Below are positions 4,225 to 57,170 of a stretch of DNA of 60,653 nucleotides, piece after piece. This DNA comes from Psittacicella hinzii (lineage in GTDB: Bacteria > Pseudomonadota > Gammaproteobacteria > Enterobacterales > Psittacicellaceae), in NCBI RefSeq assembly GCF_003585935.1, contig NZ_NRJG01000028.1, forward strand, positions 1 to 60,653, read 5' to 3'. The notes under the pieces were generated by a model that was given only the letters and a program-made list of their open reading frames with translations, had not been told where the DNA came from and did no database searches. Position numbers and translations under genes: made by a program. Every line of letters starts with the position of its first letter. Position 1 is the stretch's first letter.

Positions 4225-5166
4225 TCACGATTTCTTTTCGTCGCTCTTATCTGGAGTAATGGTAATGCCAAACTGTTTTAATAAGAAGATCGTGTTTTGA
4301 TTTTGTTCTTTGAACTGTTGGTATTTTGGTGTACCAGGTTTAAAGCTAACTTGGTATGCCGGAGTTTGGCGTTTTAGTGTATTGAGCAGTAGGTTAGTAC
4401 GCTTTTTCATCTCCGGCGATAAAGGTTGGCTTTGATGTTGTTCTACGTTTTTTAGAATTACACCTAATAGAGCAATGCTTTGTAAGTAATCTGAACTATT
4501 TAACGCAAAGTCATTCCATAGCAGTTGCATACTACACAACGTATGCATTACTGGTAAGTTTTGTTCAACTAGAGCCCAACGAGTTACTTGTTGTTGATAG
4601 TTGTAACAAAGACTAATTAAGTTACTTAGTTCAGTAATAGCTGGTGCTGAATAAGTATCATTTTCAATGCGATAGTTCTCATTTAAGCGTAGTAATGAGT
4701 AAGCTACATAGGTAATGAACTGCGAGTAAGTTAGTTCTTTTTTCTGTAGCATAAACATTAAAGTACGACTTGCATCTGGATAGAACTTAGTTTGTAATTC
4801 AGGATTACGTTTAATGAGTTCTGTAATTTTTTGTAAAGTTACAAGACCTTCAGCAGCGGCTGACGAGTTCTTATAGTTAGCTAAGAATAATGGATCTTGC
4901 TGCGCATAGGTAATTTGTTGTGCCATGAGCTCAGGATCAGTTGTAATCTGAAACAGCCCTTTAGCAATAGTTTTACCATCTTTACTCGTTGTGTTTTTAA
5001 GCGTAAGCGCGTTAAGAGTTAGATTGGTGGTTACAGGATATACAGAGTATTTATCTAATAAAGAAGTTGTGTTGGGATTAGCTTGGGCTAAGCTTGAGCT
5101 TAAACTACAAACTCCAGTCAAAGCTAAAGCTGCCAGCGTGCGTGGAGAAAATTTGAATTTTGCCAT
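4225..5166 (-). CDS. Exported two-cysteine paralogue A, function unknown
   Basis: I do not recognise a named domain. The protein begins with a Sec-type signal peptide (basic start, hydrophobic core, probable cleavage after AQA at residues 27-29). The mature part is mostly helical and Gln/Leu-rich. It is a divergent member of the family repeated through 4.2-15.1 kb. Its conserved points are NDTYSAP before the first Cys, Cys187 and Cys211 (23 residues apart), and VSFKP near the C-terminus. The two cysteines could form a disulfide in the periplasm. At 313 residues it is the longest member. It has its own strong terminator, so it is probably transcribed alone. An envelope role is inferred only from the signal peptide. 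Confidence 0.8.
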   Translation of the reverse strand: MAKFKFSPRTLAALALTGVCSLSSSLAQANPNTTSLLDKYSVYPVTTNLTLNALTLKNTTSKDGKTIAKGLFQITTDPELMAQQITYAQQDPLFLANYKNSSAAAEGLVTLQKITELIKRNPELQTKFYPDASRTLMFMLQKKELTYSQFITYVAYSLLRLNENYRIENDTYSAPAITELSNLISLCYNYQQQVTRWALVEQNLPVMHTLCSMQLLWNDFALNSSDYLQSIALLGVILKNVEQHQSQPLSPEMKKRTNLLLNTLKRQTPAYQVSFKPGTPKYQQFKEQNQNTIFLLKQFGITITPDKSDEKKS

Positions 5167-5223
5167 AGAGAAAGAGATCTTGTAATTGGAGAGATAGCTC
5201 TAGGAGTTAAAAAGCTCATAACG

Positions 5224-5383
5224 AGAAAAATATCTTAGAGTTAGAGCAAGAGCCCTAAGACCAGAAAAATCTTTTAGAGCTAGAGTAAGAACTTTAAATA
5301 GCTATAAAAAGCTCTTAGAGCTTGGATAAGGCTTTTAAATATAGAAAAATATCCTAGAACTAAAGTAAGTACCTTAAAGTTGC
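5224..5383. repeat. Four degenerate tandem units of about 37-43 bp
   Basis: Units start near 5224, 5263, 5306 and 5343. Each resembles AGAAAAATATCTTAGAG followed by an ANT-rich AGAGTAAGA segment and a CTTTAAA-like end. They lie just upstream of paralogue A and are not coding. Confidence 0.55.
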
Positions 5384-5915
5384 AAGATTATCTGTAAAAA
5401 TCTTTGGTAGTATGTCTTATCGTATAGCTTAATTACTAAAAGTCCTATTATGCCGTAGATTTTACTTTAGATCTGTACTTTTTACTTGTACCTAAAAAGG
5501 GTAAATTGTTAATCTTTTCCGTAGTTAAGAGCAGTATTTGCGATTTATTGATAGATATAAATAGAGAATTAGGTTATGTTCCTCAATTGAGGGATGGCTA
5601 GTGGCTTTTTCCTATCAATTTAAGGTTGAATTTTTCAAGCTAGTAGATATAAGATCAAGATCGTGGGCTTTTAGACATAATTTAATGTTTTTCCGAGCAA
5701 ATAAGGTAAAATAAACTAACCCCCTTGTAAGTTATTGAGCATCTCTTATGGGGTATCCAGCTTTAACTCAAGATGGACAAAGAAAATTTTTCTCTGTAAA
5801 GAAACATTGGTAACTTACTCGAGTAACATTAGGGTGAAGTTAGAGTAAGTGCTAAAAATTAGGTATCTTATCTTCTAAATCTCTTTACTATTTCCATAAT
5901 CATTAGAGAAAGGTT
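5384..5915. other. Gene-free spacer between divergent genes
   Basis: The spacer separates the minus-strand gene starting at 5166 from the plus-strand gene starting at 5916. It should hold the promoters of the latter, and no clear consensus promoter was found. No open reading frame or RNA structure was recognised. Confidence 0.4.
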
Positions 5916-6872
5916 ATGAGTTATAATAAATTTTTTCATCAACAACTTCTCTTATGGCAACAAACGGTAAGAACTACCAGTAAACTAAGTATTAGTTTAG
6001 GGCTAGGTTTAAGTTTAGTAAGTGGAGTGCAAACAGCATGGGCTAATCCAACTCCTGCTGTACCAGCAGTACCAGCGACTGCTCTACCAACTAATGCCGC
6101 AGAAATTGCTAAGCAAATGGTAGATAAAGCTACGCAAACTGCAACCAATGCTGCAGCGCAAGTTGCGAATCAAGCCGCAAATCAGGCAGCGACGCAAGCT
6201 GCTAACCAAGCAGCACAAAACGCCCAAACTGCGGCACAAACGGCTCAAGATGCAGCAGTAGCTGCACAAGAGGCTGCGCAAGCTGCACAAGCAGCAAGCG
6301 CTAATGTGGATAAAGTAACTGCCGAGATTGCTCGTCAGACCAATCAAGGTAAGCGCCCACACCATGATTTTTCAGTGCGTCCGGGAGGGGTGCTGCATGA
6401 TGGTAGTGGTAAAGCTTTTGATCCGCAAGATCAAATTCGTGATTTCCACAATCCACCACCGCCAGTAGATATGCGTTTAACCATGTATCTACGTACGATT
6501 GGACAGCAAACATTCATTGAGCAACAACAAATGTTCACCAAACAACTAAACGATTATGAAAGTTTAGTGAGTTTTGATGATCGTGGTAAACCCGTGCCGC
6601 AATTTACCAAACTAAATTCGGCTGGTACTATTGTAGTTACTATGGGACAAGAAACTCCTTTAGTAACACGTTGCAATATGAAAGGTACTGATCTAATTTT
6701 AAAATATGCAGTAGCTCAAAATGATCTCAAAGATTTAAATCTAAGAGACATTGCGCTGAAATATCAGATGAGTACGAGTGATGTTAATGCTTTAAGTAGT
6801 AATTGTAATTTTATTAGTACGGTATCAACATACTCTACTCCAATTATTACCATTCAAAAAGGTAGTAATTAA
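5916..6872 (+). CDS. Exported Ala-rich coiled-coil protein, function unknown
   Basis: A long signal peptide ends near AWA at residues 41-43. A Pro/Val/Ala linker is followed, from about residue 60 to 135, by a run rich in Ala, Gln and Asn with a heptad-like pattern (repeats such as NQAA and AAQ). This is typical of a rod or coiled coil. The last ~170 residues are a separate domain with a Pro-rich hinge (NPPPPVD) and two cysteines (VTRCN and SSNCN). The segment LRDIALKYQMSTSDVNAL resembles the helical part of a LysM peptidoglycan-binding module, but the match is partial. GAG lies about 7 bases before the ATG. A periplasmic or surface-anchored stalk protein is inferred. It is the only plus-strand exported gene in the paralogue region. 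Confidence 0.75.
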   Translation: MSYNKFFHQQLLLWQQTVRTTSKLSISLGLGLSLVSGVQTAWANPTPAVPAVPATALPTNAAEIAKQMVDKATQTATNAAAQVANQAANQAATQAANQAAQNAQTAAQTAQDAAVAAQEAAQAAQAASANVDKVTAEIARQTNQGKRPHHDFSVRPGGVLHDGSGKAFDPQDQIRDFHNPPPPVDMRLTMYLRTIGQQTFIEQQQMFTKQLNDYESLVSFDDRGKPVPQFTKLNSAGTIVVTMGQETPLVTRCNMKGTDLILKYAVAQNDLKDLNLRDIALKYQMSTSDVNALSSNCNFISTVSTYSTPIITIQKGSN

Positions 6873-7333
6873 TAACTATCTAACATTTTATGATTACATT
6901 TATAGGCTACTTTTAAGTATGTCTATGTTTGTAGATTACTTTAGTAGACTACTGCCGCTTTGAGGTGAAGATAGTTATTTTTAGTATTAGAATTTTCTCA
7001 TAAGGCTCACCGGTTTCACAGTTTCTAATAATAGGAAAATCAGCTATTTGTATATATAGTTGTATGTAGTTATATATTTGCAGATAGTTAGATTTAGCAA
7101 GAATAATTATGGGGCACTGCGTTGCAGTGCCCCTGAAATTATAGTTTTGTTTAAAATTTTATTGCTCACTTTGCTTGTACGCCAAGCGATACTTTATTTA
7201 AGTAATCTAGTTGAGAGGTTAATTTTAAAATCTTAACTAAGTTTAAGCTTAAGTTTAATTTAATTCTCAACTAAGCTTACTCCTAAACTTACAAGCTTAG
7301 CCCTCTTGGCATAGCTTGGATTAACTTGAGTAA
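6873..7333. other. Spacer between convergent genes
   Basis: AT-rich and non-coding, with the hairpin at 7111-7133 and several TAAGTTTAAG-like short repeats at about 7220-7290. Nothing else was recognised. Confidence 0.4.
7111..7133. terminator. GC-rich hairpin between convergent genes
   Basis: GGGGCACTGC pairs perfectly with GCAGTGCCCC around a GTT loop. Neither strand has a good T-run, so it is a terminator-like hairpin rather than a textbook terminator. Confidence 0.5.
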
Positions 7334-8179
7334 CTATTTTCTAAATCCTGGTAAGATATACTGTTGCTCCATTTGCTGACTATGTAAATTGATCGTTAAC
7401 TGTTTCTGTTGTAAAAAGTTAAGGATATAGTCAATAAATGGATTGTTAACAAGTAGATCTTTTGGTTTAAGTGGCATGTAGTTAAATCCGCCTGCTTGTA
7501 CTTGTTCGGTAAGAATTTTGCCCAAATAGTTTTTATGCTGATTAAGGGTTAAATTACTACCAGTCGTATCTTCAAGTAGTTGTTGTCCGTACAGACCTTG
7601 AGTGGCAAGACTCTGCACAAAGTCACCATTAAACAAGCTTAAAGTTAAGTAAAAGATACTGACTTGGCAAGCTTGAAAAATAGGTTCGGGTAACTTTTCC
7701 GCTGCTTGATGTAACTCAAAGTCACTACTGTTAAACAGTTTAAAACAATCACGTCCAAAGTTTAACCAGTCTGGAACTTGCGGGAAATTAATGCCGTATT
7801 GATTGGTATACTGATAGGCTAAAGATTTACCTAAGGTTTGCGTTACGGCATCCATAAACTCCATTGGGCTTAGGCTGAGTAAGTGGTTGCTGTTAGCCTG
7901 AACTAAGGGTAAATGATTGTTAGCAACTAAGAGTTGTAAAAAAGATTCGAGACTATTGTACTCTTCAATCACTAAAGATAACGGTGATTCAAAAGCTAAA
8001 GCTTCGTTCAGACTATCGTTATTGGTAGCAGTTGAGTTTGCTTGACTTGTGGGACTAAATAATAAACCACAACTAGCAATGAGGAATACACATAAGGCAA
8101 GAACATATGAGCGTAAACGTAGGAGCTTGCTACTAACGTAAGCTAATACTGGTTCATGCCCTAAAGAAAATGTGACCAT
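7334..8179 (-). CDS. Exported or lipid-anchored two-cysteine paralogue B
   Basis: No known domain is recognised. The N-terminus has a hydrophobic segment ending in L-I-A-S-C (Cys37), which fits a lipobox, so this member may be a lipoprotein. Alternatively, cleavage after SQA near residue 47 would release it. Family landmarks are present: NQYGINFP, Cys145 and Cys171 (25 residues apart), and GGFNYMPLKP near the C-terminus, equivalent to the conserved Phe-x-[Tyr/Phe] motif. It starts 51 bases after paralogue C ends and is probably in the same transcript. The start has no visible ribosome binding site. It is one of the most divergent members. Confidence 0.75.
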   Translation of the reverse strand: MVTFSLGHEPVLAYVSSKLLRLRSYVLALCVFLIASCGLLFSPTSQANSTATNNDSLNEALAFESPLSLVIEEYNSLESFLQLLVANNHLPLVQANSNHLLSLSPMEFMDAVTQTLGKSLAYQYTNQYGINFPQVPDWLNFGRDCFKLFNSSDFELHQAAEKLPEPIFQACQVSIFYLTLSLFNGDFVQSLATQGLYGQQLLEDTTGSNLTLNQHKNYLGKILTEQVQAGGFNYMPLKPKDLLVNNPFIDYILNFLQQKQLTINLHSQQMEQQYILPGFRK

Positions 8180-8230
8180 AAGGTTGATTAATGATTATCA
8201 GCTAAAAAAACTCTAGTTAAGTTTAAAAAG

Positions 8231-8968
8231 TTAAGGTGCAACAAGGTTTACACCTTGAGCAAGGAGTAGTTGCGCTAAAGCAAAATACAACCCTTGCTGT
8301 TGTAAATCTTTATCACTGTAAGTAGTAAAAGTAAATCCTAAACGCAAGTTAGCTGCACGACTTTGGTTATGCACTAAGAGCATGCATTGCTGAAAAAAGT
8401 TATAGCGCGAGGTTTGACTTGCCATTAACTTTTTTTGTAAACTTGCTTGATGTAAATGCCAATAGTGTCCAGTAAAGATTAGGGTTTGAAAGTAATCGCG
8501 ATTGAACTGTAATAAGTAAGGTAAATACAGTAAAGGCACGCACTTTTTGTCCCAATGAGAACTGTGGTTCTCTTGTTTAGCAAAAACTAAGTAAGTAGCA
8601 CAATTTAACATTAAATCATAAGCCACTTGGCTAGCCATAGATAAGTAGCGATTATTGCGAATATCGTAATCTAAAGTCGCAGCATAGGCTTTAGCTAAAT
8701 CGGCAACGGCCTGCTCATAAGTAAGAGCAGGTATAGCTTGCCATTTAGTTAAAAGCTCTTGGCTAGTTTTGATTGTGTTGCTTACTACTTGGGGATGATT
8801 AGTTTCTAAGTCGTTGAGAAGTTGGGCTATTTGCTGACTTGGTTTAAGTTGAGCTGTAGTTTTCGCTTGCAATACTTGACTACTAATGCCTAAACCTAAG
8901 CTCCCAAGTACTACTAGGTTTAGACAAGCGCGCAAGCTGTATAAAAATTTAAAGTAGAACTGTTGCAT
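8231..8968 (-). CDS. Exported two-cysteine paralogue C
   Basis: This is a 245-residue protein with a signal peptide (probable cleavage after LQA, residue 35) and no recognised domain. It is a clear family member: RNNRYLS motif, Cys123 and Cys143 (19 residues apart, with HWDKK just before the second), LGFTFTTYS near residue 215 and a Leu-rich end. HWDKKC here closely resembles QWDKFC in paralogue D. It is followed after 51 bases by paralogue B on the same strand. The function is unknown; the signal peptide and cysteine pair point to the periplasm. Confidence 0.8.
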   Translation of the reverse strand: MQQFYFKFLYSLRACLNLVVLGSLGLGISSQVLQAKTTAQLKPSQQIAQLLNDLETNHPQVVSNTIKTSQELLTKWQAIPALTYEQAVADLAKAYAATLDYDIRNNRYLSMASQVAYDLMLNCATYLVFAKQENHSSHWDKKCVPLLYLPYLLQFNRDYFQTLIFTGHYWHLHQASLQKKLMASQTSRYNFFQQCMLLVHNQSRAANLRLGFTFTTYSDKDLQQQGLYFALAQLLLAQGVNLVAP

Positions 8969-9066
8969 ATTAATGAGCTTAAGTGAAAATTAAAGCATAA
9001 GTTTATTATGACTATTATATTAGACCTGTGAATAATTTTTTTAAAAAATGATAATAGAGGAAAACG

Positions 9067-9126
9067 ATGTTCACAAGAGAATCTCTAGTAAATATTTTCA
9101 ATTTTTACCTATTTAAAGGTGAATAA
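9067..9126 (+). CDS. Possible 19-codon leader peptide
   Basis: A short frame (MFTRESLVNIFNFYLFKGE) is preceded by AGAGGAAAAC, one of the best ribosome binding sites in this region, 6-7 bases before the ATG. It ends 41 bases before the earliest possible start of the next gene, in a different frame. It could be a leader peptide or the decayed beginning of the S24-like gene. Evidence is limited to the binding site. Confidence 0.3.
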   Translation: MFTRESLVNIFNFYLFKGE

Positions 9127-9167
9127 GCTTTAACTTGGTATAAAGAAGACACCAATATAAGTAAAGC

Positions 9168-9836
9168 TTGCTTATTACTTCTTTGTGGTGGAAATCAGAG
9201 CAAGTGCACGTAAATTTTAATCAGGCTGAGCGTACAAGCGTAGATTTCTTTAATCAAATTTGTTTATTCTTAGGTTTTCGTAGTAAAAACTTTAAGCTTC
9301 TTTTCTCTTACTGCCAAAATAAAGGTTGGGTTAGTGAACCAACAATTTTTGTTGAGGAGTTTAAAGCTCTTGTAAATGCTTGGGAAGAAGTTCCAGATTA
9401 TGAAGAAGGAAAAGAAATTACCTTAGAACAAGCTCTATATGAAGATCTAGCTGAGAATTATATTACAGCACTATTCCTTGAGCCAGAATACATCCCATTA
9501 CATTCGCTCGAAGAATTATATATTGGTGATGATAAGTTTAGCCCTGTGTTAGTAGAGGGTGATATAGTTGCTGTTTTAAGAAAAGATAAATTTTGCGGTA
9601 ATGGTTTATACCTAATTCGCAAAGTAGATGCTGTTCAAGAAAATCCTGTATTAGTTGAATTAGCTGAACAAGCTGAGAGCAAGAATTTCAAAGTATTATA
9701 TGCAACTAATCCGGAGCTAAACAATAGCACTCTTAATAGAGATGATTTTGAGATTATCTATTGTATTGCTGTAGCAACGAGAAGAGGTGCACCTGTAGTG
9801 TTACCTAGTCAGATGCCTGAGCTAAACAATAATTAA
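9168..9836 (+). CDS. S24/LexA-fold repressor-like protein lacking the catalytic dyad
   Basis: The C-terminal half (about residues 115-210) reads like the C-terminal domain of phage repressors and LexA: FSPVLVEGDIVAVLR, GNGLYLIRKVD, VLYATNPELNNSTLNRDDFEIIYCIAVATRR. The Ser of the usual D-S-M-x-P-T motif is not in place and the Lys of V-K-R is missing, so self-cleavage is unlikely. No helix-turn-helix is recognisable in the first 100 residues. An in-frame stop lies two codons upstream of the TTG at 9168; alternatives are TTG 9183 and GTG 9204, and none has a good ribosome binding site. It could be a non-cleavable regulator, a repurposed domain, or a gene whose 5' end has decayed. It stands opposite to its exported neighbours. 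Confidence 0.6.
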   Translation: MLITSLWWKSEQVHVNFNQAERTSVDFFNQICLFLGFRSKNFKLLFSYCQNKGWVSEPTIFVEEFKALVNAWEEVPDYEEGKEITLEQALYEDLAENYITALFLEPEYIPLHSLEELYIGDDKFSPVLVEGDIVAVLRKDKFCGNGLYLIRKVDAVQENPVLVELAEQAESKNFKVLYATNPELNNSTLNRDDFEIIYCIAVATRRGAPVVLPSQMPELNNN

Positions 9837-9877
9837 GAGTTCAAAATAAGCCCAAATGATTAAGCATTAGCTTTATC

Positions 9878-9916
9878 AAATAGTAATACCCAGCCGATGG
9901 CTGGGTATTACTATTT
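9878..9916. terminator. Bidirectional intrinsic terminator
   Basis: A perfect 18-bp stem (9878-9895 with 9899-9916) with loop GAT and A/T-rich flanks on both sides lies between a plus-strand and a minus-strand gene that converge. It can serve both. Confidence 0.8.
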
Positions 9917-10060
9917 ATAAAATTGAAAACTGTTGGTCTGACCTGTGCGGTTAAGATAATACGTTAAGGTAAGAGTAAGCGTTATGATCTTAATGGCTCT
10001 TGATGATCCCTACGAATAATCTTTATTTACAGATGCGCTCTTAAATCACTGCAAATCGGT

Positions 10061-10792
10061 TTAAGTACGAGGATCTTTAATTACGGTCGTAGGTAAATTA
10101 CGACTTGCTAAGTAACGATTAATCTGTCTGATTAAGCGAATTCCAGAAGTAGTATTAGCCGCAGGTAAAGCACTATAGGTAAAACCTAAATCATTAACCG
10201 TTGATTGGTTCTTATGCACGCGCGTCATTACGCTTTGATAAAAGCGTAAAGTAGAGAGTTCTCCATTACCAAGGCGATTTTGCTTTTGTAATGAGGAGTA
10301 ACTTAAAAACTGGGTATAAACCAGTAATGATTTAAACTGATTTAACGAAGTAAAGCTAGCGCTAATGGTTTTAAATGGCGCGCAGAATTTATCCCATTGT
10401 GGGAAGTTGCGACTATTGCGCGCACTGCGTCCGGCAGGTAAGCTATTGCAAGTTTGCGCAAAGGTGTATACCGCATCTGCGGCAGTATTTGAATAACGAT
10501 TACGAGCAATAATTGGGTGTAACTCGTTATTGAGCATACTACTTAAACTAAAGAAGTAGTGCTGCATGCTAAGCGTGGTTTGATAAACCAGCACTTGCTC
10601 AAACTTAGTTAGAGCGTTATGGGTATTTGTGAGTAGCGTTTTATGAGCTTGATAAGCATGTTGTAAACGATACTCAACATTAGCGCGACTATTATAAGCA
10701 GCTTGCGCGATACTGCTAGTCATAACTAGCCAACTACAGCTAGCAAGACTAAGAGAAAAAACTTTAGACCAAAGCGAGAAAAACCTAAACAT
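10061..10792 (-). CDS. Exported two-cysteine paralogue D
   Basis: This is a 243-residue exported protein with the signal peptide ending near AQA (residues 29-31). It is one of the best-conserved members of the local family: RNRYSNTAADAVYTFAQTC, Cys115 and Cys137 (21 residues apart, QWDKF before the second), then NDLGFTYSALP about 75 residues later. The mature protein is basic and probably all helical. No catalytic signature is recognised. It is flanked by a convergent terminator on one side and a small membrane ORF on the other. The function is unknown. Confidence 0.8.
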   Translation of the reverse strand: MFRFFSLWSKVFSLSLASCSWLVMTSSIAQAAYNSRANVEYRLQHAYQAHKTLLTNTHNALTKFEQVLVYQTTLSMQHYFFSLSSMLNNELHPIIARNRYSNTAADAVYTFAQTCNSLPAGRSARNSRNFPQWDKFCAPFKTISASFTSLNQFKSLLVYTQFLSYSSLQKQNRLGNGELSTLRFYQSVMTRVHKNQSTVNDLGFTYSALPAANTTSGIRLIRQINRYLASRNLPTTVIKDPRT

Positions 10793-11016
10793 TGACCTTA
10801 CTCATGAAAATTGAACAAACTGCTAGCTATTATACAACTAGCAAGCTTGCGTAAAAGTAGATCTTAGGGATTTTATTCTTGAGAGCAAGAAATTGCTAGG
10901 ACTTGCTATCAATTTATAGATCGAGACTAGACTTTAACTATCAGTAAGCGTTAAGTCTGAAACTTTGAACAGTTTGTAGATCCAGTCTGAGGTTGTATAA
11001 ATATACAAGGCTAAGC

Positions 11017-11259
11017 TTAACAAGGAGGCTTGTTATTAGGTAAGGCATTTTGACTTGGAGCTACTTGTTCTTTATCACTTGAAGCAAACTTCACTTGTGC
11101 CGGTTGAGGACAAGTAGTTGCTGTATACTTTTGCATAAAGTAGTGACTTGAACTATGACTCATATGCAATAAAGTTAAGGCTAAATAGAGAGCAATAATG
11201 GGCTTAACGACAACCGCACTATATCTCCATATACCACGAAGAATTTTAGAAAATGACAT
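11017..11259 (-). CDS. Small single-span membrane protein, hypothetical
   Basis: The chosen ATG gives 80 residues; a TTG two codons upstream is also open. A basic start is followed by one hydrophobic segment (VVVKPIIALYLALTLLH, about residues 15-35), then a polar tail with two cysteines and a PPC end. No ribosome binding site is clear. It lies between paralogues D and E. It may be a real small inner-membrane protein or a chance frame. Confidence 0.4.
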   Translation of the reverse strand: MSFSKILRGIWRYSAVVVKPIIALYLALTLLHMSHSSSHYFMQKYTATTCPQPAQVKFASSDKEQVAPSQNALPNNKPPC

Positions 11260-11265
11260 AAACAA

Positions 11266-11594
11266 TTTTAGTGCTAAGGGCTTAAGACATATAGCTTAAC
11301 CTCAAGGGTTAATCTCTACGATTTAGCACCTCTAGAAAACTTAGTTACTGTTCTAAGTAGTAAGTAAAAAAGTACTACCTAGCTACTTAATTAGACAGAC
11401 TAAAATGCTAAAAGTTTTATGCCATTATCAAAAAAAATAGTAAGCAAAAAGTGGATTTAGCTATAGAAATATAGCTATGGATAAAAGTCCGAGTGCGTAA
11501 CAAATAAACAGGATCTGTGCAATCTACAATGCAACATACCCCTGTAGCTTTTAGTGCCTTAGCACTTAAAGTTACAGGGGTAAGTTATTAAAAA
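11266..11594. other. Spacer upstream of the small ORF
   Basis: AT-rich, non-coding. It contains only the hairpin at 11537-11582 next to the end of paralogue E. Confidence 0.4.
11537..11582 (-). terminator. Hairpin just after paralogue E
   Basis: TACCCCTGTA pairs with TACAGGGGTA, and the interior contains AGTGC-CTTA-GCACT, giving a long nested hairpin 13 bases beyond the stop codon. A T-run is lacking. Confidence 0.55.
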
Positions 11595-12416
11595 TTATTT
11601 TTTAGTTTGCTTTGTCGCCGGAGTAGGGTTCTCAAGAACAACTTTAAAACCTAGATGTGAAACATATTTGTTTAGAACTTCAAGGTTTTGTTTCATTTCT
11701 GGAGACTCTAAAGCTGGTAAAGGTTCAAAGCGGAATGCTAAAGTTTTCTCAAAATTAGCAATATCACCTTTACTTAAGCTTTCTAAACCAGTTTTAATTA
11801 GCGTTTGTGCTTCTTTTTCACTTGGAGTTAGCTCTTTAGCAGGTAGTTGCTCTAAAGCATAATAAGCTGTCATGTAAAGAGCAGACTCAAACATTTGTAA
11901 GCTTTGACCGTAAGCCATAGCTACAGGAATAAAGAAGTGACAAGCACCAAACCAATCAGCTTTAACGTCTTCTTTTTTCACTTGGTCGTGAATCATAGTA
12001 TTGGCACAAGCGAAAACGAAGTTATACAGCGGATAAGTATTTGGACCGTTTTGGAATTTACCATTTACTACACTAAAGCCAGTAGTATCTAACATGCCCG
12101 CAGCTGAATAAGCCACAAAGTCATCGATCATAATGCTTTTAGTTTTACTGTTAGCTACATCGTTATAGAAGTCGTATAGATTATGCGCTACTTCATCATA
12201 CATTTGCGAATTTTTAGCATATAAATCCATTGCCACTTTACGATAGTCACCATCGGCTGGGATCGTTGGACCATTACGTACTTCATTTACTGGAAGTAAA
12301 GTAAGGTCATAAGGGGTAGCAGCATTAGCCATAGGTGCGAACATGGTAGTTGCACTTAAAGCCATTAAGCTTGCTGAAAGGAATTTAATTTTTTGCGTTA
12401 ATGAGCGAAAAATCAT
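11595..12416 (-). CDS. Exported two-cysteine paralogue E
   Basis: This is a 273-residue protein with a signal peptide cleaved near ANA (residue 32). Family landmarks: GKFQNGP in place of the usual N-x-Y-[ST]-N-P, Cys137 and Cys159 (21 residues apart, ADWFGA before the second), PVAMAY after the pair as in other members, and LAFRFEPLP near residue 230. The C-terminal Thr/Lys-rich tail is unique. Mature protein helices are likely. The function is unknown; no enzyme motif is visible. Confidence 0.8.
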   Translation of the reverse strand: MIFRSLTQKIKFLSASLMALSATTMFAPMANAATPYDLTLLPVNEVRNGPTIPADGDYRKVAMDLYAKNSQMYDEVAHNLYDFYNDVANSKTKSIMIDDFVAYSAAGMLDTTGFSVVNGKFQNGPNTYPLYNFVFACANTMIHDQVKKEDVKADWFGACHFFIPVAMAYGQSLQMFESALYMTAYYALEQLPAKELTPSEKEAQTLIKTGLESLSKGDIANFEKTLAFRFEPLPALESPEMKQNLEVLNKYVSHLGFKVVLENPTPATKQTKK

Positions 12417-12694
12417 GGGGAGAATCCTGTAATAGAGATAAAAGTTCTTCTAAGAAAACGGGAGTAAGTAATAAATAAACGGAGTTTATTGTTTACTTTC
12501 TTAGAGGTTAAATCATGACGTAACTATCGTAAACTTAAACTAACTTGTTACAGACAGCTGTTATAAATATAGAGCTAAAGCGACAAATATCAAGCTAAAA
12601 CTAAGGTAGTCTATATTTAGTTATAGCCTATATCTAGTTATAGTTGATATGGTTGCTCGCAAGTACAAGCTTAAGAGTCTGCTAAGACTTCAAC

Positions 12695-12874
12695 AAAGCT
12701 ATCTATAAAGCCAGCATCAAAGCCAGCAACAAAGCTTGAAACAGAGCCCTCAATATAGCTTGAAACAAAGCTAGCAACAAAGCCCTCACTAAAGCTAGCA
12801 GCAAGGCTTGCAACAAGACCAGAAATATATCCTGAAATATAGCCTAAAATAGAGCCTGAAGCCAAGCCTGCAAC
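12695..12874. repeat. Fifteen degenerate 12-bp tandem repeats
   Basis: The block divides exactly into 15 units of 12 bases resembling AAAGCCAGCAAC or ATAGCTTGAAAC. On the minus strand one frame is open throughout (12671-12865, TTG start) and would encode a tetrapeptide repeat of [Ser/Gly]-[Phe/Tyr]-x-x (GYIS, GFVA, SFVS, SYIE and so on). There is no ATG start and no clear ribosome binding site, so I treat it as a repeat array first and a coding frame second. Confidence 0.7.
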
Positions 12875-12997
12875 TTAGTTAGTACCCTAAGTAAGTTATT
12901 GGTGTTAAGTCTGATTAGGATGAAAGAGTAGATGATGAGATCACTAATTTGTTCTACTCTTAACTCTAGGAGTTTAGGTAAGCTTTAATACTCTTTC

Positions 12998-13765
12998 CTA
13001 GTCTTTAAGCTTTAAGCGGTAGTACTCATCAAAATAACTATGTAAACTTGCAGCACACACCACTAAATTAGGTGTTTTTTCTGGTTCAAAGTCTAAATAT
13101 TCTTGGCTTAATTCTGGATCTTTGTAGATGATATCTACAACTTTCTTGAAGTAAGCAAGGTTACGACTTTTTACGCTTGCCAGTTGTGGTTTGGCAGTAT
13201 TCTGTTGGGCTAGTAAGCGTTGATAGGTCGCTAAAAATACATCTGTATGCAAGGAAGAGATATGATTGTCATATACCATAGCTAAAGGAGCTAAAGGTTT
13301 ACATACAGGCCACCAACGATCAAGACTTTCTTGATCAGGAGCATGTTGCATTACTGCCAAGCGTAATTGGTTACACAATATCGCTACTTGGTACAGTTGT
13401 GTAACTTGGGGATTACTGTATTGGTTTCTGGCAATAGTATATTCAGTATTAGTTGCCAGTACTTGATTGCTCTGAGAAATTAAACTTTTAACCGTTAACG
13501 GGTTTTTACGATTAGTCGCCAGTTTATTGTAGAGTTTGTTCAACTCTGCACTGGTACGATAGATCAAATCTGCGGTTTGGGGATTAACCATTAATGAGTT
13601 CAACTCAGTATAGATTTGACTTTGTTTTTGGGTTGCAATAGGTAAAGCTTGGGTTGCACTACTCCATAAAAACAATGAGCTCAATGTTGCGCGAGTAAGT
13701 AGTGTACGTGGGATCAAGAAATTACCTATAACGTTTGACTTAAACATATGGCAAGTCAACCTCAT
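12998..13765 (-). CDS. Exported two-cysteine paralogue F
   Basis: This 255-residue family member has landmarks ARNQYSNPQVTQLYQVAILC, Cys131 and Cys155 (23 residues apart, RWWPV before the second), KPLAPLAMVYDNHISSLHTDVF after the pair, and YLDFEPEKTP near residue 224. The signal peptide probably starts at the internal Met7 (ATG at 13747), giving a basic start, a hydrophobic stretch and cleavage after TQA. The upstream ATG at 13765 has no better binding site. The function is unknown. It shares the NxYSNP and YxxxxxxC pattern most closely with paralogues D and G. Confidence 0.8.
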   Translation of the reverse strand: MRLTCHMFKSNVIGNFLIPRTLLTRATLSSLFLWSSATQALPIATQKQSQIYTELNSLMVNPQTADLIYRTSAELNKLYNKLATNRKNPLTVKSLISQSNQVLATNTEYTIARNQYSNPQVTQLYQVAILCNQLRLAVMQHAPDQESLDRWWPVCKPLAPLAMVYDNHISSLHTDVFLATYQRLLAQQNTAKPQLASVKSRNLAYFKKVVDIIYKDPELSQEYLDFEPEKTPNLVVCAASLHSYFDEYYRLKLKD

Positions 13766-14298
13766 ATAGGGGAAAAGATAGATTCGAGGAAAGATCTGTG
13801 TACTAATAATATGCCATCTAGTACTGAAGAATAAGAGGAGTTATATGACTGTGCTTAACTTTGTCACAGAGAACATATAAACATAGACCTTTCTCTCTAT
13901 ATTTTACGTGATGTTGGGCATATTTAGCATTGCCAAAGGTAAAAAAGCCGCTTTACTCGGACTTTTTAAAGATTTTTACCTGAAAAATAGAGCTGCTCTT
14001 GCTTTTATCTGTCAAAAGTAAGTGAGAATACAGCAGCAAAATATCATGCTTTGCCTTGTGGCAAATCTGCCTAGCAGGGAAGAATATCCGAGCTAATCTC
14101 GGATATTCTACAAATCATAATTACAAATGACAAGCTTAGCTTGTAAGACCTGTTCATAAGCATAGTCCAAGCCAATAGGAGTCATCCCAGCTCGTAAACA
14201 TTAGTCAAGCTCATGAGTATGATCTAAGCTTGTAAGCATAAGCTAAGCTCATAAATATGATCTAAGCTCGTAAGCATAAGCTAAGCTCATAATCCTAC
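13766..14298. other. Spacer with imperfect 38-bp repeats
   Basis: Non-coding. Apart from the repeat at 14207-14293, no open frame, promoter or RNA was recognised. Confidence 0.4.
14207..14293. repeat. 38-bp direct repeat, about 2.3 copies
   Basis: Unit 1 (14207-14244) and unit 2 (14245-14282) read AAGCTCAT...TATGATCTAAGCT.GTAAGCATAAGCT with a few differences. A third partial unit (14283-14293) reaches almost to the stop codon of paralogue G. Sub-repeats of CTAAGCT-GTAAGC occur within each unit. Confidence 0.7.
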
Positions 14299-15105
14299 TT
14301 ACTTTGGTTGTTGATTAGTGTGGTAATCGTGAATTAGTTTTAAACGTAAACCGTTAAAGTACTTATCAAGAGCATTGTATTGCGCTTGATTAACGCTTCC
14401 TTGCTTATAGGTAAAGTCTAAATCACGTTGTGCCTCAGCCAGATCAGCTTTTATTATACGGTACAAGTGCATAAAATTACGGATGTAATCTTGCGAAGGA
14501 GCTGGAGCATTAGTCTCTTGGCGTTGTTTAAGAGTTACGTATTGTACGGTAAATAAACTTGTACGATAAGTAGCTAATTCTTTATAAATTAGTGCTACAG
14601 GGGCAAGATAGCCACAGTTACGTGCTAAATGCTCTGGCATTTTAAATTTGCTTACTTTACTTGCGCTATTAGTGTAGTAAAGGCAAGTTTGTGCAAACTC
14701 ATAAACAAGATTAGCTTGAGGATTAGTGTATTTACCAGCGGCAATTTGCGGTTGGGTGAACAGATTAATGATATTCCCCGAATCATAGATAAATTTCATT
14801 AGACTTACATTCGCAGCTCCTGATGTGAGGTAACTACGATAAAGTAGACCTAAGTAATCGACGATTTGGGTAATGCTTTGTTTGCTATCTTGTTGTAAGA
14901 GTTGCTCTAAGCGTTGTTGATAGTCACTTGGAGTTAAAAGTTGTTGCGGTAATAAGCTTGGAGATTCTACTTGAGGTACGGTTGGTTGTACTTCTGGAGT
15001 AGAGTCTGTACTTTGAGCAAAAGTTAAACTTGCGGTAAGGGCTAAGCTTGAAGCTAAGGCAAGTTTAAGGGTTAGGCGACTAAGGTTTGCTGTAAATAAC
15101 GCCAT
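14299..15105 (-). CDS. Exported two-cysteine paralogue G
   Basis: This 268-residue protein has a signal peptide ending at TFA (residue 30), then a Pro/Ser/Gln-rich linker to about residue 55. Family landmarks: AAGKYTNPQANLVYEFAQTC, Cys141 and Cys164 (22 residues apart), GYLAPVALIYKELATYRTSLF after the pair, and RDLDFTYKQGS near residue 233. It is the best reference member for the family because every shared motif is present. The function is unknown. It is first in order of transcription direction among the minus-strand series but is separated from paralogue F by more than 500 bases, so it is probably transcribed on its own. Confidence 0.8.
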   Translation of the reverse strand: MALFTANLSRLTLKLALASSLALTASLTFAQSTDSTPEVQPTVPQVESPSLLPQQLLTPSDYQQRLEQLLQQDSKQSITQIVDYLGLLYRSYLTSGAANVSLMKFIYDSGNIINLFTQPQIAAGKYTNPQANLVYEFAQTCLYYTNSASKVSKFKMPEHLARNCGYLAPVALIYKELATYRTSLFTVQYVTLKQRQETNAPAPSQDYIRNFMHLYRIIKADLAEAQRDLDFTYKQGSVNQAQYNALDKYFNGLRLKLIHDYHTNQQPK

Positions 15106-21942: not shown

Positions 21943-24900
21943 TTACTCATCTCCCTTAAAACTCGTAAGAATAGAACTACGATCACCAAGTTTTTCATTG
22001 AGTAAATCACTTGCTTGGTGAATACGAGCTTTATCACCTTTTGTCAAACCTGCATTAAGTTTATGAATAATCCGTTGTTGGCGTAAGCGCTTTTTATGTC
22101 CTACGACATCGGTAAACATATTGGCTTGGAACTCTGTGTTGTAAGGGATGATGTTAATAGCCCGTACAGTTAAAGCTCGTACTGGTAATGACCAATGGTA
22201 GTTGGCATTAAACAGCTCGGTCGCTTTAGCCGCTAGATCTTTAGCGATCAAGGTTGGAAGTTCCATTTGCGCTTGCCAACTATGATCTTTAAAAGATGTA
22301 TCACGGATCGAAATTTGTACACCGTAGGCTAAACAGTTTTCACGATGTAGCTTCTCTGAAACTTCAACCGCTAATTCAAGAATAAAGCGTTTGATTTCAG
22401 CTGGATCATGCGCATCGGTTGATAAGGTTGTGCCACGTCCGACTGATTTAATGCGGTCGCGGTTTTTACCATCTTTTACGGAGACACAATCTAAGCCATT
22501 AGCATCTAGCCAGAGATTTAAGCCGTGATGTCCTAGGGCATCGTACATTTTTTGGCGCGGCGTATTCGCTAGAGCACCAATTGTCCCTATACCTAGGCGA
22601 TCGAGCTTAATTAGAGTTTTACGTCCTACCCCAATTAGTTCTGATACTGCACGCGGCCAAACGATCTCTTGCCAGCGATGCGGAGGGATACACGTAACCG
22701 CGTCTGGTTTTTTCATATCTGAACCTAATTTCGCTAGAACTTTATTAAAGCTTACCCCTACCGAAATAGTAATCCCTAATTCTCGCTTAATATGTTCACG
22801 AATTTGATTAGCTAGGGCTTCTGGAGATTCATATTGCGCTACTACTTCGGTTACGTCTAACCATGCTTCATCAATACTATAAAGCTCAACATGAGGTGTA
22901 TATTGCGCATAGATTTCTGATGCCATATTCGAGTAACGACGATAATCATCAAAGTTCGGTGGCACTAAAATTAAGTTGGGACATTTTTTTAGTGCTACGA
23001 CTGTTGGTTCTCCGGTAGTAATGCCATATTCTTTAGCAGCATAAGAACGAGCGAGAATAACTCCTTTGCGCTGTTCAGAATCTCCGGCAACGGCAATGGC
23101 TTTGCCTTGCAGTTGCGGATTTTCACGGGCAGCAATGGAAGCAAAACAGTTATTCATATCACAATGTAAAATTACACGTTCATATGTTGGGTGCAACTTA
23201 TCTAAATCGATTTTCTCCATGGTCTCGATATTGGTATCGCGAATATAGAGATCTCGTTTTTGCGCTAAAGCTTGGTAGACATTTTCTTCGATCTTATCAA
23301 CATGCATGATCTGACAAAACTCAGGCACTGATAAGTAAGCTAACTCTTGTAAAGCTTGGCTTGAGAACTCACAATTAAAGCCTGCATAATAGTGCAGTTC
23401 ATTGCGTACTTTATGTAAGCTATTATCGTCGTGATAATAAACTTGGTTTAAGACAGCAATAATTTCGGCATGGAAGTTATGTACTTCTTTTTGCCAAGCA
23501 TAGTAGTAAGCTAAGTATTGTTCTGGAGTCATAAATACGTTCTGCGGTTCAGTATAACGTCCAAAATCCAGACCATATTCTTGTTTGATATATTGCTGGT
23601 AGAACGTCATGCCTTCGGCACATTGGTTTTTACTTTCTTGGAAACGATTAAAGCTCACTCCTTGACGAATGCTATGAGCAATATCTTCAGGAATGCTTGG
23701 GAGATAGAAGTTTGGTTGACTATTACCATGCCATAATTCTCCTGTGAGCGGATTAGTAGCACTCACGCCAAGAATATGGTATCCCGCATGACGACTTGAT
23801 CCCTGATAACGTGAGTTAGGGAAGTAGGTTGCCATATAAGGAATTACCCCATAACTATTACGACGAAACGTGCGTTTTAATAGCGCCGGAAAAGCATAGA
23901 TTTGCTGACGATTACGATAAGCACCATAGGCAGTAGCTAAGTTTTGCGTGAGTTGAGTATAGAATTGCTTATCTAACTCAGTCGTAAATGTAAGCGTAGC
24001 TTGATAGTTTAAATTAGGACTAATGCCACTATAGAGTAAGAACTCTTGTTGTGCTTGACTAATTACTTTAGCATTAACAGCAGGATTAAGTTGGGTTAAT
24101 ACTTCTTGCTCTGTGTTCAGTGGAGCAACAGGTGTAGCCATGGGATCAAGCATCATATCCATATCCACCGTAAACTTACCCGTAGCAGCTCGACTGAAAA
24201 GCGCAGTGAGCTTATTAGGAGTAGAGAAGAACTCTTGAATTGCAACTTGTCCGACCTGCTCTTGTGCTTGTAAAGCACGTTGCATTTGTTGGTTTTGCTC
24301 AGGTTTCAGTTGCGGAGCTGAGTCTGCATTACCGAGCAAGCCCCAACGGCAGTTTTGCACTACAGGCAGGACTAATTTAAGTTCTGTAAGTTCTGGAGCT
24401 TGTTGCTTAATCCCAAACCTCTCAGCTGTCACTACTAATTTATAGCTTTCTGCTGGAGAGGCTTGCTGCTTAGTAGCTAATTCATGCCATACATTATGCG
24501 CTTGGCTGCGCATTTCTGGTGACAGAATATGCAATGGCGTACGCGTAATTTCTTGCCCTAAAGCCGCGTACATCACTTGTTGACGATAGTCCTTACTAGC
24601 CGCAAACTTCTGTACGTGCGTAATATCTAAAGTATTAAACAGTTCATTGGTCGCAGCCGCAGAGACTACACTTAGATTAAATGCATTAGCACGACTATAA
24701 GCTTGGGAGAATTTTTGTGCTGCTACTGGATTAAGCGTTAAGCATAGTTGGGCTAAACGTTGCGCATGTTCTTTACGGTAACGCGAGTAGTGCGTTGGCA
24801 GCGGTAAAGTATGTGCTTGTTCATAATCTTGTAAGCGTGCATATTCTTCTAACGGTAACATGAGATCAGGAAGTAGCACTAAGCCATTGTAGTATAGGCT

Positions 24901-27900
24901 GGCATAAGTACCATATCCCTCTAACTGGTGCTCGTTTGCTTGCATTTCATCTAAGTACACAAGGCTTTGAACTTTAGTGATGTAGTTGTTCGCTGCATCA
25001 TAATAAGCTTGAGCTCTTTGTTTTATATGAGCTTGCGCTTGTGGATTATATTTTGCGCGTTTTAGTAAGGTGTCTACAGGATTATTCCATGCAAAATGTT
25101 CAGGTTCATGATGTAAAAACGAATAACGATTTTCTTTATGGTAATTACTAAAGTATTTACGATAGTAATGTTCAAGATAATCAGCATCCGGAATTACTTC
25201 GAGCTGATTTGCAGCTTGTAGATCTCCTGTTTTACTAACTGCTTTTACTAGAATATTAGTAACTGCGGTTGATAATAAACTTGGGTTATCTTCATTACCT
25301 GTACTTAGATGCACTTGTCCTAAATCTTGTTGTAAAGCTACTAAAGATTGTTTGTCTTGTGCTGTACGTTGTAACTGTGGATTAACCTTGTGTTCACGTC
25401 CTAAATAGTTATTGCTGCTTTTTACTTCTTGTTGTCCAGCTTTGGCTTGAGCCAGAGCTTGACTCCAACCTTTAGCTACTTCGTCTTCGGTAGTTAAAAT
25501 CGCAGCTTGGTGCTTAGGTTGTGAGGTAAGAGGGAAGTCCGCAGTAAAGGTTTGTGGTTTACGTTGTCTTGGCTCTTTATGCTTATATGCAGCAAGTTTA
25601 GTTTGCTGCATATAGTACAACTCTTTAGCTAACTCAAAGTAATCTCCGTAACTTTGCTCAGAGATTTGCATATATTGTACTAGAGGATTATTAGCTTTTT
25701 CTGGGCTAGGTTGAGAAGTTAGTGTACTTTGAACGGTTTGTAAACCTTGAGCCGCTTGTGTACTTTGAGTAGCTTGTGTAACTTGAACGGCTTGTGTACT
25801 TTGAGCACCTTGTGCAACTTGCGCTGCTTGAGTAACTTGCATTTGCGAAGCAGGGTTAACTTGCGCAAGAGGAGTAAATCTACTACTAGCAAGACTGTTA
25901 AGCGAGCCACTAGTAGCACTATTAGAGGCATTATTGGTAACGACACTGTTAGTAGCAACACTACTAGAAGTAAAACTATTAGCAACACTGTTAGCAACAC
26001 TGTTAACAAAATTACCAGTAGCGCCTTGGGTATCTCCTTGAGAAGCTAAACCTTGGCTTTGAGCATAACTAAGATTACGCTCATGCACTAGTTGGTTTTG
26101 GGCATGCATTTGCTCTTGGAGAGCTTGTGCCATCTTACCTGGAGTTATAGGTGCTTTAGAGAGCGCTTGTTCTTGGTTCTCTTCTGCACTATCAGGGTTC
26201 TTACTTAAAGCCTCAATAAAGCGTTGACGCATCTGTCTTGCTTCTAACTTATCGCGTTGCTTTTTCGTTTGATGGGCATTAAGACCTGGTAAAGTTAGGC
26301 TTTTAGTATCTAACTGTTCATGCATGGCTAGATGTAAAGCATCTTGCTCTTGTTGGGCAATATCAGTTAGTACTATACGCATGGTTTCTTTTTGCGTTGC
26401 CGCAAAAGCAGAATCTACTGCCTTGCGGCTTCTTTTTTGCGTTAAGTAAGCGCGTTGCTTTTGTTTTTGTAAGCGACGGGCTAGATCATCATCTTCTCTA
26501 GTATCAAGACGAAAACGCTCATCGGTTGCGTCCGCGGCAAAGTTAATATGCTGCAGATCGTGGATCGGCAGTTTATTTAGATTATTTTTGTGCCAAATAT
26601 AAATAAAATTCTCATTAAACGGTAAGAATCCTGATTGTTGATCAATATATACCGGTAAAGGAGTTTTACTAAACTGCTGTCCAGAAGTAATTTGTGGTAC
26701 TTCTTGATGTAAAGCTTGTCCTAATTGTTCGTATAGATGTAAGTAGTTTAAGTAACCGGTATAGCGTAATTCTCCACCACTTAAAGCAACATAATCTGGG
26801 ATGCTTGTGCTGGTTTGTTCTTGTGCTTGAGAATTATCTAGTGTTTGCTCTTGTGCTTTATCTTGATTACTATCTTGTACTTGACTTTGTGCTTGAGATA
26901 GATCTTGTGGCTCGTTTTGATCTTGTGACTTGGCTTGATCTTTAGTTAAAGCTTGAGCTTGTGTATTTTGTGCAGTTTGGCTATTTTGCATAGCTTGCGC
27001 ATTTTGTACACTTTGCTCATAAGCTAAAACTGTACGCAGCTTAAACAGATTAACCCAACGTGCTTTACTATGGAGACGTGGGTCAATAGTCATTACTGCT
27101 ACTGGTAAGTTTTTATTAATTTCAGGATCTAATTCTCCCAGAATAATATGCTGCGCATATTGTCCACAAAACTCCCAGTCAATTAGGTATTTATCTAAAG
27201 GTGCTTGATAGTAACTATCAATAACCTTTTGTTGATAAGTAAAGTCTTTACCTAACCAGTGTTGCAAACCTTCACTGGTTTTCGTTTCAATAGTTGAGAA
27301 TTGATGTTGGTGGTTACGTTTATCTAGAGCATTTAATGCTGTCCAGATATCCGTTTGATACCAAGTTACTTTGTCAAGTTTAGGAGTTGGATAGGCAATA
27401 CCTAGTTTACTTGCTAGTTGCGGAATAATCTGATAGTAGTAAAAACTACTATTAGCTTGCGCTTTAGCGTTGTACAGTAAACCAAAACGATGGAATAACT
27501 CTTGTTGTTGGTAAGAGTATTCTTTTTTCATTAAAGGTAACTGATCAAGACCAACGCTTACGCGTGCACTACCACCATGACTTAATTGTTGTTTACGAAT
27601 AATAGTTGTTAAGTAGTCATAAGCTAAGTCATAACGCCATTGGTTCTCAAAGTAAGCTAAGCGATCTTTAACTTCGTTGTTATCTACTTTAAAAGTATTA
27701 TAACCATCACCTTTTTTAACAATATGCTCATTAAAAATTGGCATGTAATCAGCATAGCTTTGTTGTTCTGGGCGATTAGATGGAATATCTTCTAAACGTA
27801 AAGGTCCTGAGCTGCGGCGAATATTAGCTAAAGCTTGTGCTTCGGCTTGTGCTTTTTGTTCTTGGCGTAACAGGGTTTGATGGTACTGCTCAAGATAATC

Positions 27901-31038: not shown

Positions 31039-31118
31039 ATAATCTGCGTATTTTCCAAAATTTTAGAGTTTCCTATTATAGCATAAGGCTAAGAATGGTT
31101 GGATTAGGGAAGCTAGAT

Positions 31119-31328
31119 TGTCTCTTATCCCTTATCTCTCATCTCTCATCTCTTATCCCTTATCCCTTGTCTCTTGTCCCTTGTCTCTTATCTCTTGTCT
31201 CTTATCTCTTGTCCCTTGTCTCTTGTCTCTTGTCCCTTGTCTCTTGTCTCTTGTCTCTTGTCTCTTGTCTCTTGTCTCTTGTCTCTTGTCTCTTGTCTCT
31301 TGTCTCTTGTCTATTGTCTATTGTCTAT
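31119..31328. repeat. Heptanucleotide tandem array, about 30 units
   Basis: Units are CTCTTGT and variants (CTCTTAT, CCCTTAT, CTCTCAT, CCCTTGT, CTATTGT). Ten consecutive units (31241-31310) are identical. All three plus-strand frames are open across it because the unit lacks stops, so the apparent proteins there are artefacts. The array lies 80 bases upstream of yigZ and is a candidate length-variable locus. Confidence 0.9.
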
Positions 31329-31804
31329 TATTTTTGTCTCGGTCTCTATTCTTTACGTAAAGACATGTCTATTCCCTTACTCTTAGTACCTATTTTTATT
31401 TAACATTAACTAAAACTGACAAATGATAGATAAGAGAAATTAGGGAATTTTTTCATTTTTCCTCTTGGTTTTTTATACTTAAGTCGCTATATTTAAGGTA
31501 AAATATACATTAAAAAATTCGCTCACAAATTTTGCTCATCTTAAACGTGGCATAAGCCATTGTTTTATCGCAGCAAAAGTTTGCAACGTGACTTTTTCTT
31601 CCCGTTTTTTGATCTTCCTTTCTAGTTAAAGGAAGCAGCCCCTTACTTAATTTAATTTCTCGCAAGGGGCTAAAATTTTGTGTATGTTTACCGTACAATT
31701 TCGTTATTCTTTTTGCATTTGTCATGTTTTTCTCTATTTTGCATTTGTTATTGCTTGTTTCTTGTACAAGGATGAGTAATAAGTAAACTAAGATAAATTT
31801 TTAA
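31329..31804. other. Spacer between the two arrays, with two hairpins and a doubtful small ORF
   Basis: TTCCTTT-CTAGTT-AAAGGAA (about 31615-31634) and AGCCCCTT to AAGGGGCT (31637-31671) form adjacent hairpins. A 71-codon minus-strand frame (31510-31725, basic, no known domain) has GAG 7 bases before its ATG, but its AGA/CGA-rich codon use differs from neighbours. I regard it as unproven. Confidence 0.3.
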
Positions 31805-45241: not shown

Positions 45242-45258
45242 ATCTTACTTCTTCTTTT

Positions 45259-45987: not shown

Positions 45988-45998
45988 AGCTATCTATC

Positions 45999-47664: not shown

Positions 47665-47668
47665 AAAA

Positions 47669-50779: not shown

Positions 50780-50787
50780 ACTACTTC

Positions 50788-51381: not shown

Positions 51382-51486
51382 GTGTTTTTTAAACCTTTAA
51401 ATCATGCCTAGTTAGTACCAATTAGCTTGGTTGCAAACTCTAAGAAAAGTTGTTAACTAGTTTGCATTGCGGGGTCTAAGTTAAAA

Positions 51487-51939: not shown

Positions 51940-51989
51940 AAAATTATTTAGATAATAGAAGGGCTAAAGCTCTGCTTTAGCCCTTAATA

Positions 51990-54305: not shown

Positions 54306-54323
54306 CTAGCGATCCTAACCAAG

Positions 54324-55619: not shown

Positions 55620-55659
55620 AATATGCTTAGCAAGCTGCTATTGATTGCAAAAAGATTTA

Positions 55660-56806: not shown

Positions 56807-56809
56807 GTA

Positions 56810-57115: not shown

Positions 57116-57170
57116 AATTTCACTTAGATATAGGAAAGAATAATTCAAACTTAAAGAGTTTTACTCTTGC

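What the first reader, a model, noticed from the sequence alone, without database searches (positions are those of the whole stretch)
4225..15105. Undescribed family of seven exported two-cysteine paralogues in one region
Seven minus-strand genes (4225, 7334, 8231, 10061, 11595, 12998 and 14299) encode signal-peptide proteins of 243-313 residues. They are highly divergent, but every one has Cys-x(19-25)-Cys and a Phe-x-[Tyr/Phe/Pro] motif about 70-80 residues later (LGFTFT, LGFTYS, LDFEPE, LDFTYK, LAFRFE, VSFKP, GGFNYM). Most also have [RK]-N-x-Y-[ST]-N-P before the first Cys and a Trp or aromatic residue before the second. Repeated duplication with rapid divergence suggests selection at the cell envelope, for example host interaction or variable surface or periplasmic partners.
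Basis: partly seen in the sequence, partly recalled or inferred. Interest (0 to 1): 0.78.

Follow-up and report, generated by a model that had tools for sequence, protein, structure and literature searches.

The report
Expanding exported protein family in Psittacicella
A bird-associated bacterium carries a large, fast-changing and so far undescribed family of small exported proteins, held together by two conserved cysteines, that has multiplied separately in different species; what the proteins bind is unknown.

Summary
A profile built only from 39 relatives outside the window recognises all seven genes (six at E<=2.4e-12, 7334 at 2.5e-4; best control 0.22). The host genus is Psittacicella (order Pasteurellales). 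Iterative search finds 65 members in four genus genomes (22, 18, 9, 16), and none in 390, 368 and 397 other genomes of the same order, class and phylum; no known family or fold matches. Only four residues are near-invariant: two Cys, one Tyr, one Phe; no polar column exceeds 66%, suggesting a binding scaffold, not an enzyme. AlphaFold gives a confident helical model (pLDDT 88.9). Relatives without a clear signal peptide lack a complete Cys pair, which fits a periplasmic disulfide. One syntenic locus holds 3+ to 14 copies. The youngest paralogues have dN/dS 0.76-1.10: fast change is shown, positive selection is not. Two of the seven (4225, 7334) group with a different array. In passing: 9-18 TpsA-type exoproteins per genome against 1-2 recognised TpsB transporters; many carry a two-Cys C-terminus shared with window protein 5916-6872.

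The parts
4225..5166 (-). family member, 313 aa, signal peptide, Cys187-x23-Cys211; affiliates with the adh-TetR array group, not with its neighbours
   Evidence: (1.7e-22 to a profile without window sequences)
7334..8179 (-). most divergent family member, 281 aa, Cys145-x25-Cys171
   Evidence: 2.5e-4; model with the same order of elements, pLDDT 72.9
8231..8968 (-). family member, 245 aa, Cys123-x19-Cys143
   Evidence: (4.9e-17)
10061..10792 (-). family member, 243 aa, Cys115-x21-Cys137; grouped with the era-locus orthologues of P. melopsittaci and P. gerlachiana (SH-aLRT 80)
   Evidence: (2.4e-12)
11595..12416 (-). family member, 273 aa, Cys137-x21-Cys159
   Evidence: (9.9e-14)
12998..13765 (-). 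family member, 255 aa, Cys131-x23-Cys155; modelled structure
   Evidence: 2.7e-17; pLDDT 88.9, pTM 0.87
14299..15105 (-). family member, 268 aa, Cys141-x22-Cys164, nearest the yihI-like/era genes
   Evidence: (2.7e-13)
5916..6872 (+). not a family member: exported 318-aa protein inside the array whose last ~80 residues are the two-Cys C-terminal domain found at the ends of giant TpsA-type ORFs; possible partner, link not shown

Best explanation
The seven genes belong to a genus-restricted, birth-and-death multigene family of small all-helical proteins. Most carry a Sec-type signal, some a lipobox, a few a membrane anchor. After export they are probably clamped by one intramolecular disulfide between neighbouring antiparallel helices, oxidised by the Dsb pathway. 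They are most likely non-enzymatic binding proteins on the periplasmic side of the envelope: a fixed core (two Cys, one Tyr, one Phe, hydrophobic helices) carries a freely changing surface, and different copies would bind different or changing partners. New copies arise by tandem duplication at preferred loci, diverge quickly and are sometimes broken. Shown: homology, restriction to the genus among genomes searched, the conserved Cys pair, species-specific expansion, fast protein divergence, a confident model. Inferred: disulfide, periplasmic location, binding role. Unknown: the partners; I rank variable external partners (host molecules, phage or rival products) above the bacterium's own giant exoproteins.
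For: Profile homology of all seven; 65 members, best control 0.63; Cys 65/65 and 63/65; no polar column above 66%, so no sign of a catalytic residue; confident helical model with the two Cys about equally far from the loop of a helical hairpin (inferred from positions, coordinates not read); three tandem relatives without a clear signal peptide keep Tyr and Phe but have no complete Cys pair; DsbB in 4 of 4 genomes; syntenic locus with 6+, 14, 6 and 3+ copies and species-specific clades; orthologues 35-64% identical against 83-96% for housekeeping neighbours, youngest paralogues dN/dS 0.76-1.10.
Against: Nothing shows a ligand, a disulfide or a location. dN/dS near 1 with intervals including 1 is also what relaxed constraint gives. 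A conserved active site can be missed in an alignment of sequences about 15% identical. Two of the three signal-less relatives are borderline (E 0.003 and 0.011), and one of these has a hydrophobic first stretch. Five of the housekeeping-like comparisons are few; one non-family neighbour is also fast-evolving (49% identity).
Confidence: 0.55

Rival explanations
1. Periplasmic partners of two-partner secretion: the proteins bind the two-Cys C-terminal domain of the genus's giant TpsA-type exoproteins and tune which one is held in, or released from, the one or two shared TpsB transporters.
For: 12, 16, 9 and 18 TPS domains against 2, 1, 1 and 1 ShlB-type TpsB matches; the C-terminal domain at 6, 6, 6 and 10 sites; 4 of 28 such sites have a family member within 10 kb against 0.92 expected, Poisson 0.015; a protein with this domain lies inside the window array.
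Against: 24 of 28 sites have no family member near, and the largest arrays (adh-TetR locus) have no TpsA gene beside them. The domain was first seen in family neighbourhoods, so the linkage test is post hoc. No interaction was tested.
Confidence: 0.12
2. Immunity proteins: an array of periplasmic antidotes against contact-delivered or secreted toxins of rivals or sister cells.
For: Tandem arrays of fast-diverging exported small proteins are a pattern known for immunity genes (recalled).
Against: No T6SS VipA/TssB in 4 of 4 genomes (found in the E. coli control). No toxin gene was recognised beside members, though neighbours were not scanned systematically. The PT-VENN search was uninformative (nothing rang anywhere).
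Confidence: 0.1
3. Mostly drifting duplicates: a few conserved core members have a housekeeping envelope role, and the extra copies are short-lived duplicates under weak constraint.
For: dN/dS about 1 among the youngest copies, intervals including 1; three truncated copies of 65.
Against: 62 of 65 ORFs are of full length, Cys, Tyr and Phe stay near-invariant over sequences about 15% identical, and expansions occurred separately in two species.
Confidence: 0.2

Closest known systems
Lineage-specific multigene families of exported paralogues in host-associated bacteria (general kind, recalled)
   Same: Tandem arrays, copy number differing between species, fast divergence, mixture of signal-peptide and lipoprotein forms.
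   Different: No sequence relation to any Pfam or NCBIfam family or PDB sequence, no fold match found; signal-less relatives that lost the Cys pair.
Disulfide-bearing C-terminal anchor of TpsA proteins HMW1 and HxuA (PMC5422565 and PMC8151025, passages read)
   Same: Relevant to the neighbour 5916-6872 and to the giant ORFs, not to the seven: a small C-terminal region with two Cys at the end of TpsA-type proteins.
   Different: Here the domain is about 80 residues with the two Cys about 43 apart, and it also ends a 318-aa protein without a recognised TPS domain. Sequence relation to HMW1 or HxuA was not tested.

Membership tests
Psittacicella two-Cys exported family (defined here) | sequence homology to the family profile | tested here: met
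   all seven recovered by a profile of 39 non-window members, E 1.7e-22 to 2.5e-4, best control 0.22
Psittacicella two-Cys exported family (defined here) | conserved Cys pair, Tyr before it and Phe after it | tested here: met
   65/65, 63/65, 62/64 and 61/63
Psittacicella two-Cys exported family (defined here) | common fold | tested here: inconclusive
   12998 and 7334 show the same order of elements, but both models used the same alignment and were not superposed
Psittacicella two-Cys exported family (defined here) | oxidised Cys pair in the periplasm | not testable with these tools
   indirect support only: Cys columns, signal-less relatives without a full pair, DsbB in 4 of 4
Any curated Pfam or NCBIfam family | several members matching one model | tested here: not met
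   each matching model hits 1 of 46 members, best E 0.00086 and 0.00065; none of the seven reaches a Pfam cut-off
Known solved fold | significant structural match | tested here: inconclusive
   best Foldseek E 0.64, best VIA-align Z 3.4; a missing match is not proof of a new fold
T6SS or CDI immunity proteins | genome-encoded cognate toxin or delivery system | tested here: inconclusive
   VipA 0 of 4, PT-VENN uninformative; TpsA genes are abundant and their C-termini were not screened for toxins beyond the shared domain

The most novel reading that the evidence does not exclude
The family is a previously unknown additional component of two-partner secretion: dozens of diversified periplasmic helical proteins that bind the two-Cys C-terminal plugs of 9-18 giant exoproteins competing for one or two TpsB pores, and so choose which giant protein the cell displays.
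Probability: 0.1. Interest if true: 0.85.

Novelty: new variant of a known kind. Interest (0 to 1): 0.5.

Why it matters
A protein family with no recognised relatives makes up 9-22 known genes in each small (2.2-2.5 Mb) genome of a little-studied bird-associated genus and has multiplied separately in at least two species. It is a clear case of bacterial birth-and-death evolution, with a natural control for the disulfide (signal-less relatives without a complete Cys pair). The same genomes hold many giant TpsA-type exoproteins against one or two recognised TpsB transporters, so the genus is a good place to ask how one transporter handles many substrates and whether periplasmic helpers exist.

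Tried and rejected
Rejected: that the seven are chance look-alikes; that they are one local tandem series; that they belong to a named family; that phage or plasmid records hold close relatives (single-protein tblastn, no match: window 12998 against phages; one G001 array member against plasmids). Phase-variable simple repeats upstream of the 65 members: none with the patterns used. Window 59802-60623, a lipoprotein with a widely spaced Cys pair, did not reach E 10 in the profile search and has no Pfam match. CTD-family linkage, 4 of 28 sites, is suggestive but post hoc.

Led nowhere: no PDB or viral fold match; a viral-contig scan was not possible with the diverse alignment. One of 46 members matched the PADLOC candidate PDC-S04 at 5.8e-5; it is none of the seven window genes and was not traced further. 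Literature: Psittacicella (3 papers), Psittacicellaceae (1 paper) and a six-term query on paralogous periplasmic families (4 papers hold at least 5 terms, 3 listed) gave listings without this family (passages of PMC12524120 read). One further search, on HMW1 anchoring, supplied the two reviews cited (passages).

Dropped before counts: L039 and L040 copies, identical to L031 and L033; three truncated members left out of the tree (62 of 65 rows); ORFs of 600 aa or more and of 120 aa or fewer were not searched; five borderline relatives (E 0.003-0.016) not counted. In the wide searches only the best 7 or 8 candidates per genome were scored, and those sets overlap, so they are not summed.
Full report
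WHAT WAS CHECKED. The Cys-x(19-25)-Cys spacing is exact for all seven; the Phe lies 61-71 residues after the second Cys, a little nearer than stated; the strict [RK]NxY[ST]NP motif is in one of seven, while its Tyr is general in the family. None reaches a Pfam cut-off. Pairwise BLASTP of mature parts links five of the seven convincingly, 4225 and 7334 only weakly. With a profile made of 39 relatives, none from the window, all seven are recovered: 4225 at 1.7e-22, 12998 2.7e-17, 8231 4.9e-17, 11595 9.9e-14, 14299 2.7e-13, 10061 2.4e-12, 7334 2.5e-4; the best reversed or non-member control is 0.22. Those 39 were themselves found by iterating from the window genes, so the test is independent in content but not in origin.

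WHERE IT IS. The window is a contig of an unnamed 2.48-Mb assembly in 215 contigs, 86.6% complete. Its Era protein is 85, 84 and 81% identical to those of Psittacicella melopsittaci, P. gerlachiana and P. hinzii, a genus of Pasteurellales. G001 and G003 are the first two of these (identical era contigs). G002 is a third genus genome, probably P. hinzii (inference). Among the papers searched, Psittacicella appears in bird oral microbiota (listing; passages of PMC12524120).

HOW BIG THE FAMILY IS. Iterating on ORFs of the fetched contigs converges at 65 members (22 in the window's genome, then 18, 9 and 16), with five borderline relatives at E 0.003-0.016 and the best control at 0.63. A genome-wide search with the 46-row profile gives 21, 17, 8 and 14 at E<=0.01. 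Outside the genus there is no match at E<=0.001 in any of 390 same-order, 368 same-class and 397 same-phylum genomes (overlapping sets, at most 7 or 8 candidates scored per genome).

LOCI. One syntenic locus beside a zinc alcohol dehydrogenase (Pfam) holds 6 members in the window's genome (contig ends), 14 in P. melopsittaci, 6 in G002 and 3 in P. gerlachiana (contig ends). In P. melopsittaci and G002 the other side is bounded by a TetR-type gene; the G002 one scores just under Pfam's cut-off. The window's own locus, between hemN (named from the sequence) and the yihI-like and era genes, holds 7; P. gerlachiana shows 3 and P. melopsittaci 1 before their contigs end, and P. hinzii L041 none in about 7.5 kb beyond the yihI-like gene. 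The tree (62 members, quick method; 32 of 59 inner branches weakly supported) puts 8231, 10061, 11595, 12998 and 14299 with the era-locus orthologues and one more member (SH-aLRT 86), and 4225 with the array group (91); 7334 also falls there, on a very long branch. Four G002 array genes form their own clade (99), as do three P. melopsittaci genes (100), while other array genes have orthologues in all four species (100, 96).

RATE. Between P. melopsittaci and P. gerlachiana, five family orthologue pairs are 35-64% identical against 83-96% for five neighbouring housekeeping-type pairs; one non-family neighbour is also fast (49%). The three youngest paralogues give dN/dS 0.76, 1.10 and 1.02, each 95% interval including 1. 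This shows loose constraint, not proven positive selection. Three of 65 copies are short.

ANATOMY. Only four columns are nearly fixed: Cys (65/65), Cys (63 of 64 with a letter), Tyr (62/64), Phe (61/63); the next is Asn at 66% of rows. The mature part of 12998 gives a confident helical model (pLDDT 88.9, pTM 0.87); the Tyr lies in a short hairpin, and the two Cys sit about equally far from the loop joining two neighbouring helices (inferred from positions, coordinates not read). 7334 gives the same order of elements at lower confidence; both models used the same alignment. No PDB or viral fold match was found. By a simple pattern 53 of 65 have a hydrophobic N-terminus, 10 a lipobox-like match (at least two of these, L027_1069 and window 10061, look like ordinary signal peptides by eye) and 2 neither. 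Three tandem genes at G002:C129 without a clear signal peptide (one has a hydrophobic first stretch) keep Tyr and Phe but have no complete Cys pair; one is a counted member, two are borderline. DsbB is in 4 of 4 genomes.

INTERPRETATION. The pattern fits a disulfide-clamped, non-catalytic binding scaffold on the periplasmic side of the envelope, evolving by birth and death. The partners are not known. The genus also encodes 12, 16, 9 and 18 TPS domains with only 2, 1, 1 and 1 ShlB-type TpsB matches, and a two-Cys C-terminal domain at 6, 6, 6 and 10 sites, many at the end of very long ORFs. The window protein 5916-6872, inside the array, ends in the same domain. Two reviews describe a disulfide-bearing TpsA C-terminus that stays in the periplasm (PMC5422565, PMC8151025; passages). 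A link between the two families is thinkable, but co-location is 4 of 28 sites against 0.92 expected within 10 kb and was noticed after the fact. An immunity-array reading has no positive support: no T6SS VipA in 4 of 4 genomes, and the PT-VENN search says nothing.

VERDICT. A real, undescribed, genus-restricted and expanding exported family. Absence from print rests on three searches of one open library.

Noticed in passing
window 5916-6872 (+); also G003:C258, C113, C101, G000:C1, G001:C39, G001:C43 and others: A shared ~80-aa C-terminal domain with two Cys ends this 318-aa exported protein and many very long ORFs (open frames up to 14,652 aa) in all four Psittacicella genomes: 6, 6, 6 and 10 sites, nothing convincing in 95 other genomes.
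   Followed up: partly
genomes G000-G003: Many TpsA, few TpsB: 12, 16, 9 and 18 TPS domains against 2, 1, 1 and 1 ShlB-type transporters. One transporter may serve many giant substrates.
   Followed up: partly
window 21943-29535 (-): A 2530-aa ORF with a Y-family DNA polymerase (IMS and IMS_C, Pfam) only in its last ~400 residues, behind about 2100 residues rich in Gln with no Pfam match; a similar-looking ORF is in P. hinzii L041.
   Followed up: partly
window 39462-40811 (+): Glycosyltransferase family 10 (fucosyltransferase) match, a possible tool for decorating the surface with host-like sugars (inference).
   Followed up: no
window 9168-9836 (+): A plus-strand ORF inside the array with no Pfam match; its end recalls a LexA/S24-type domain (from memory, untested).
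   Followed up: no
window 43994-58926 (-): A run of fatty-acid-synthase-like, acyltransferase and exporter-like genes that looks like an aryl polyene cluster (named from the sequence, not tested).
   Followed up: no
window 31095-31403 (+): A 102-aa ORF made of a short repeated unit, probably a tandem repeat and not a gene.
   Followed up: no
G002:C129:3958-6124 (locus L150): Three tandem family relatives without a clear signal peptide that keep Tyr and Phe but lack a complete Cys pair.
   Followed up: partly
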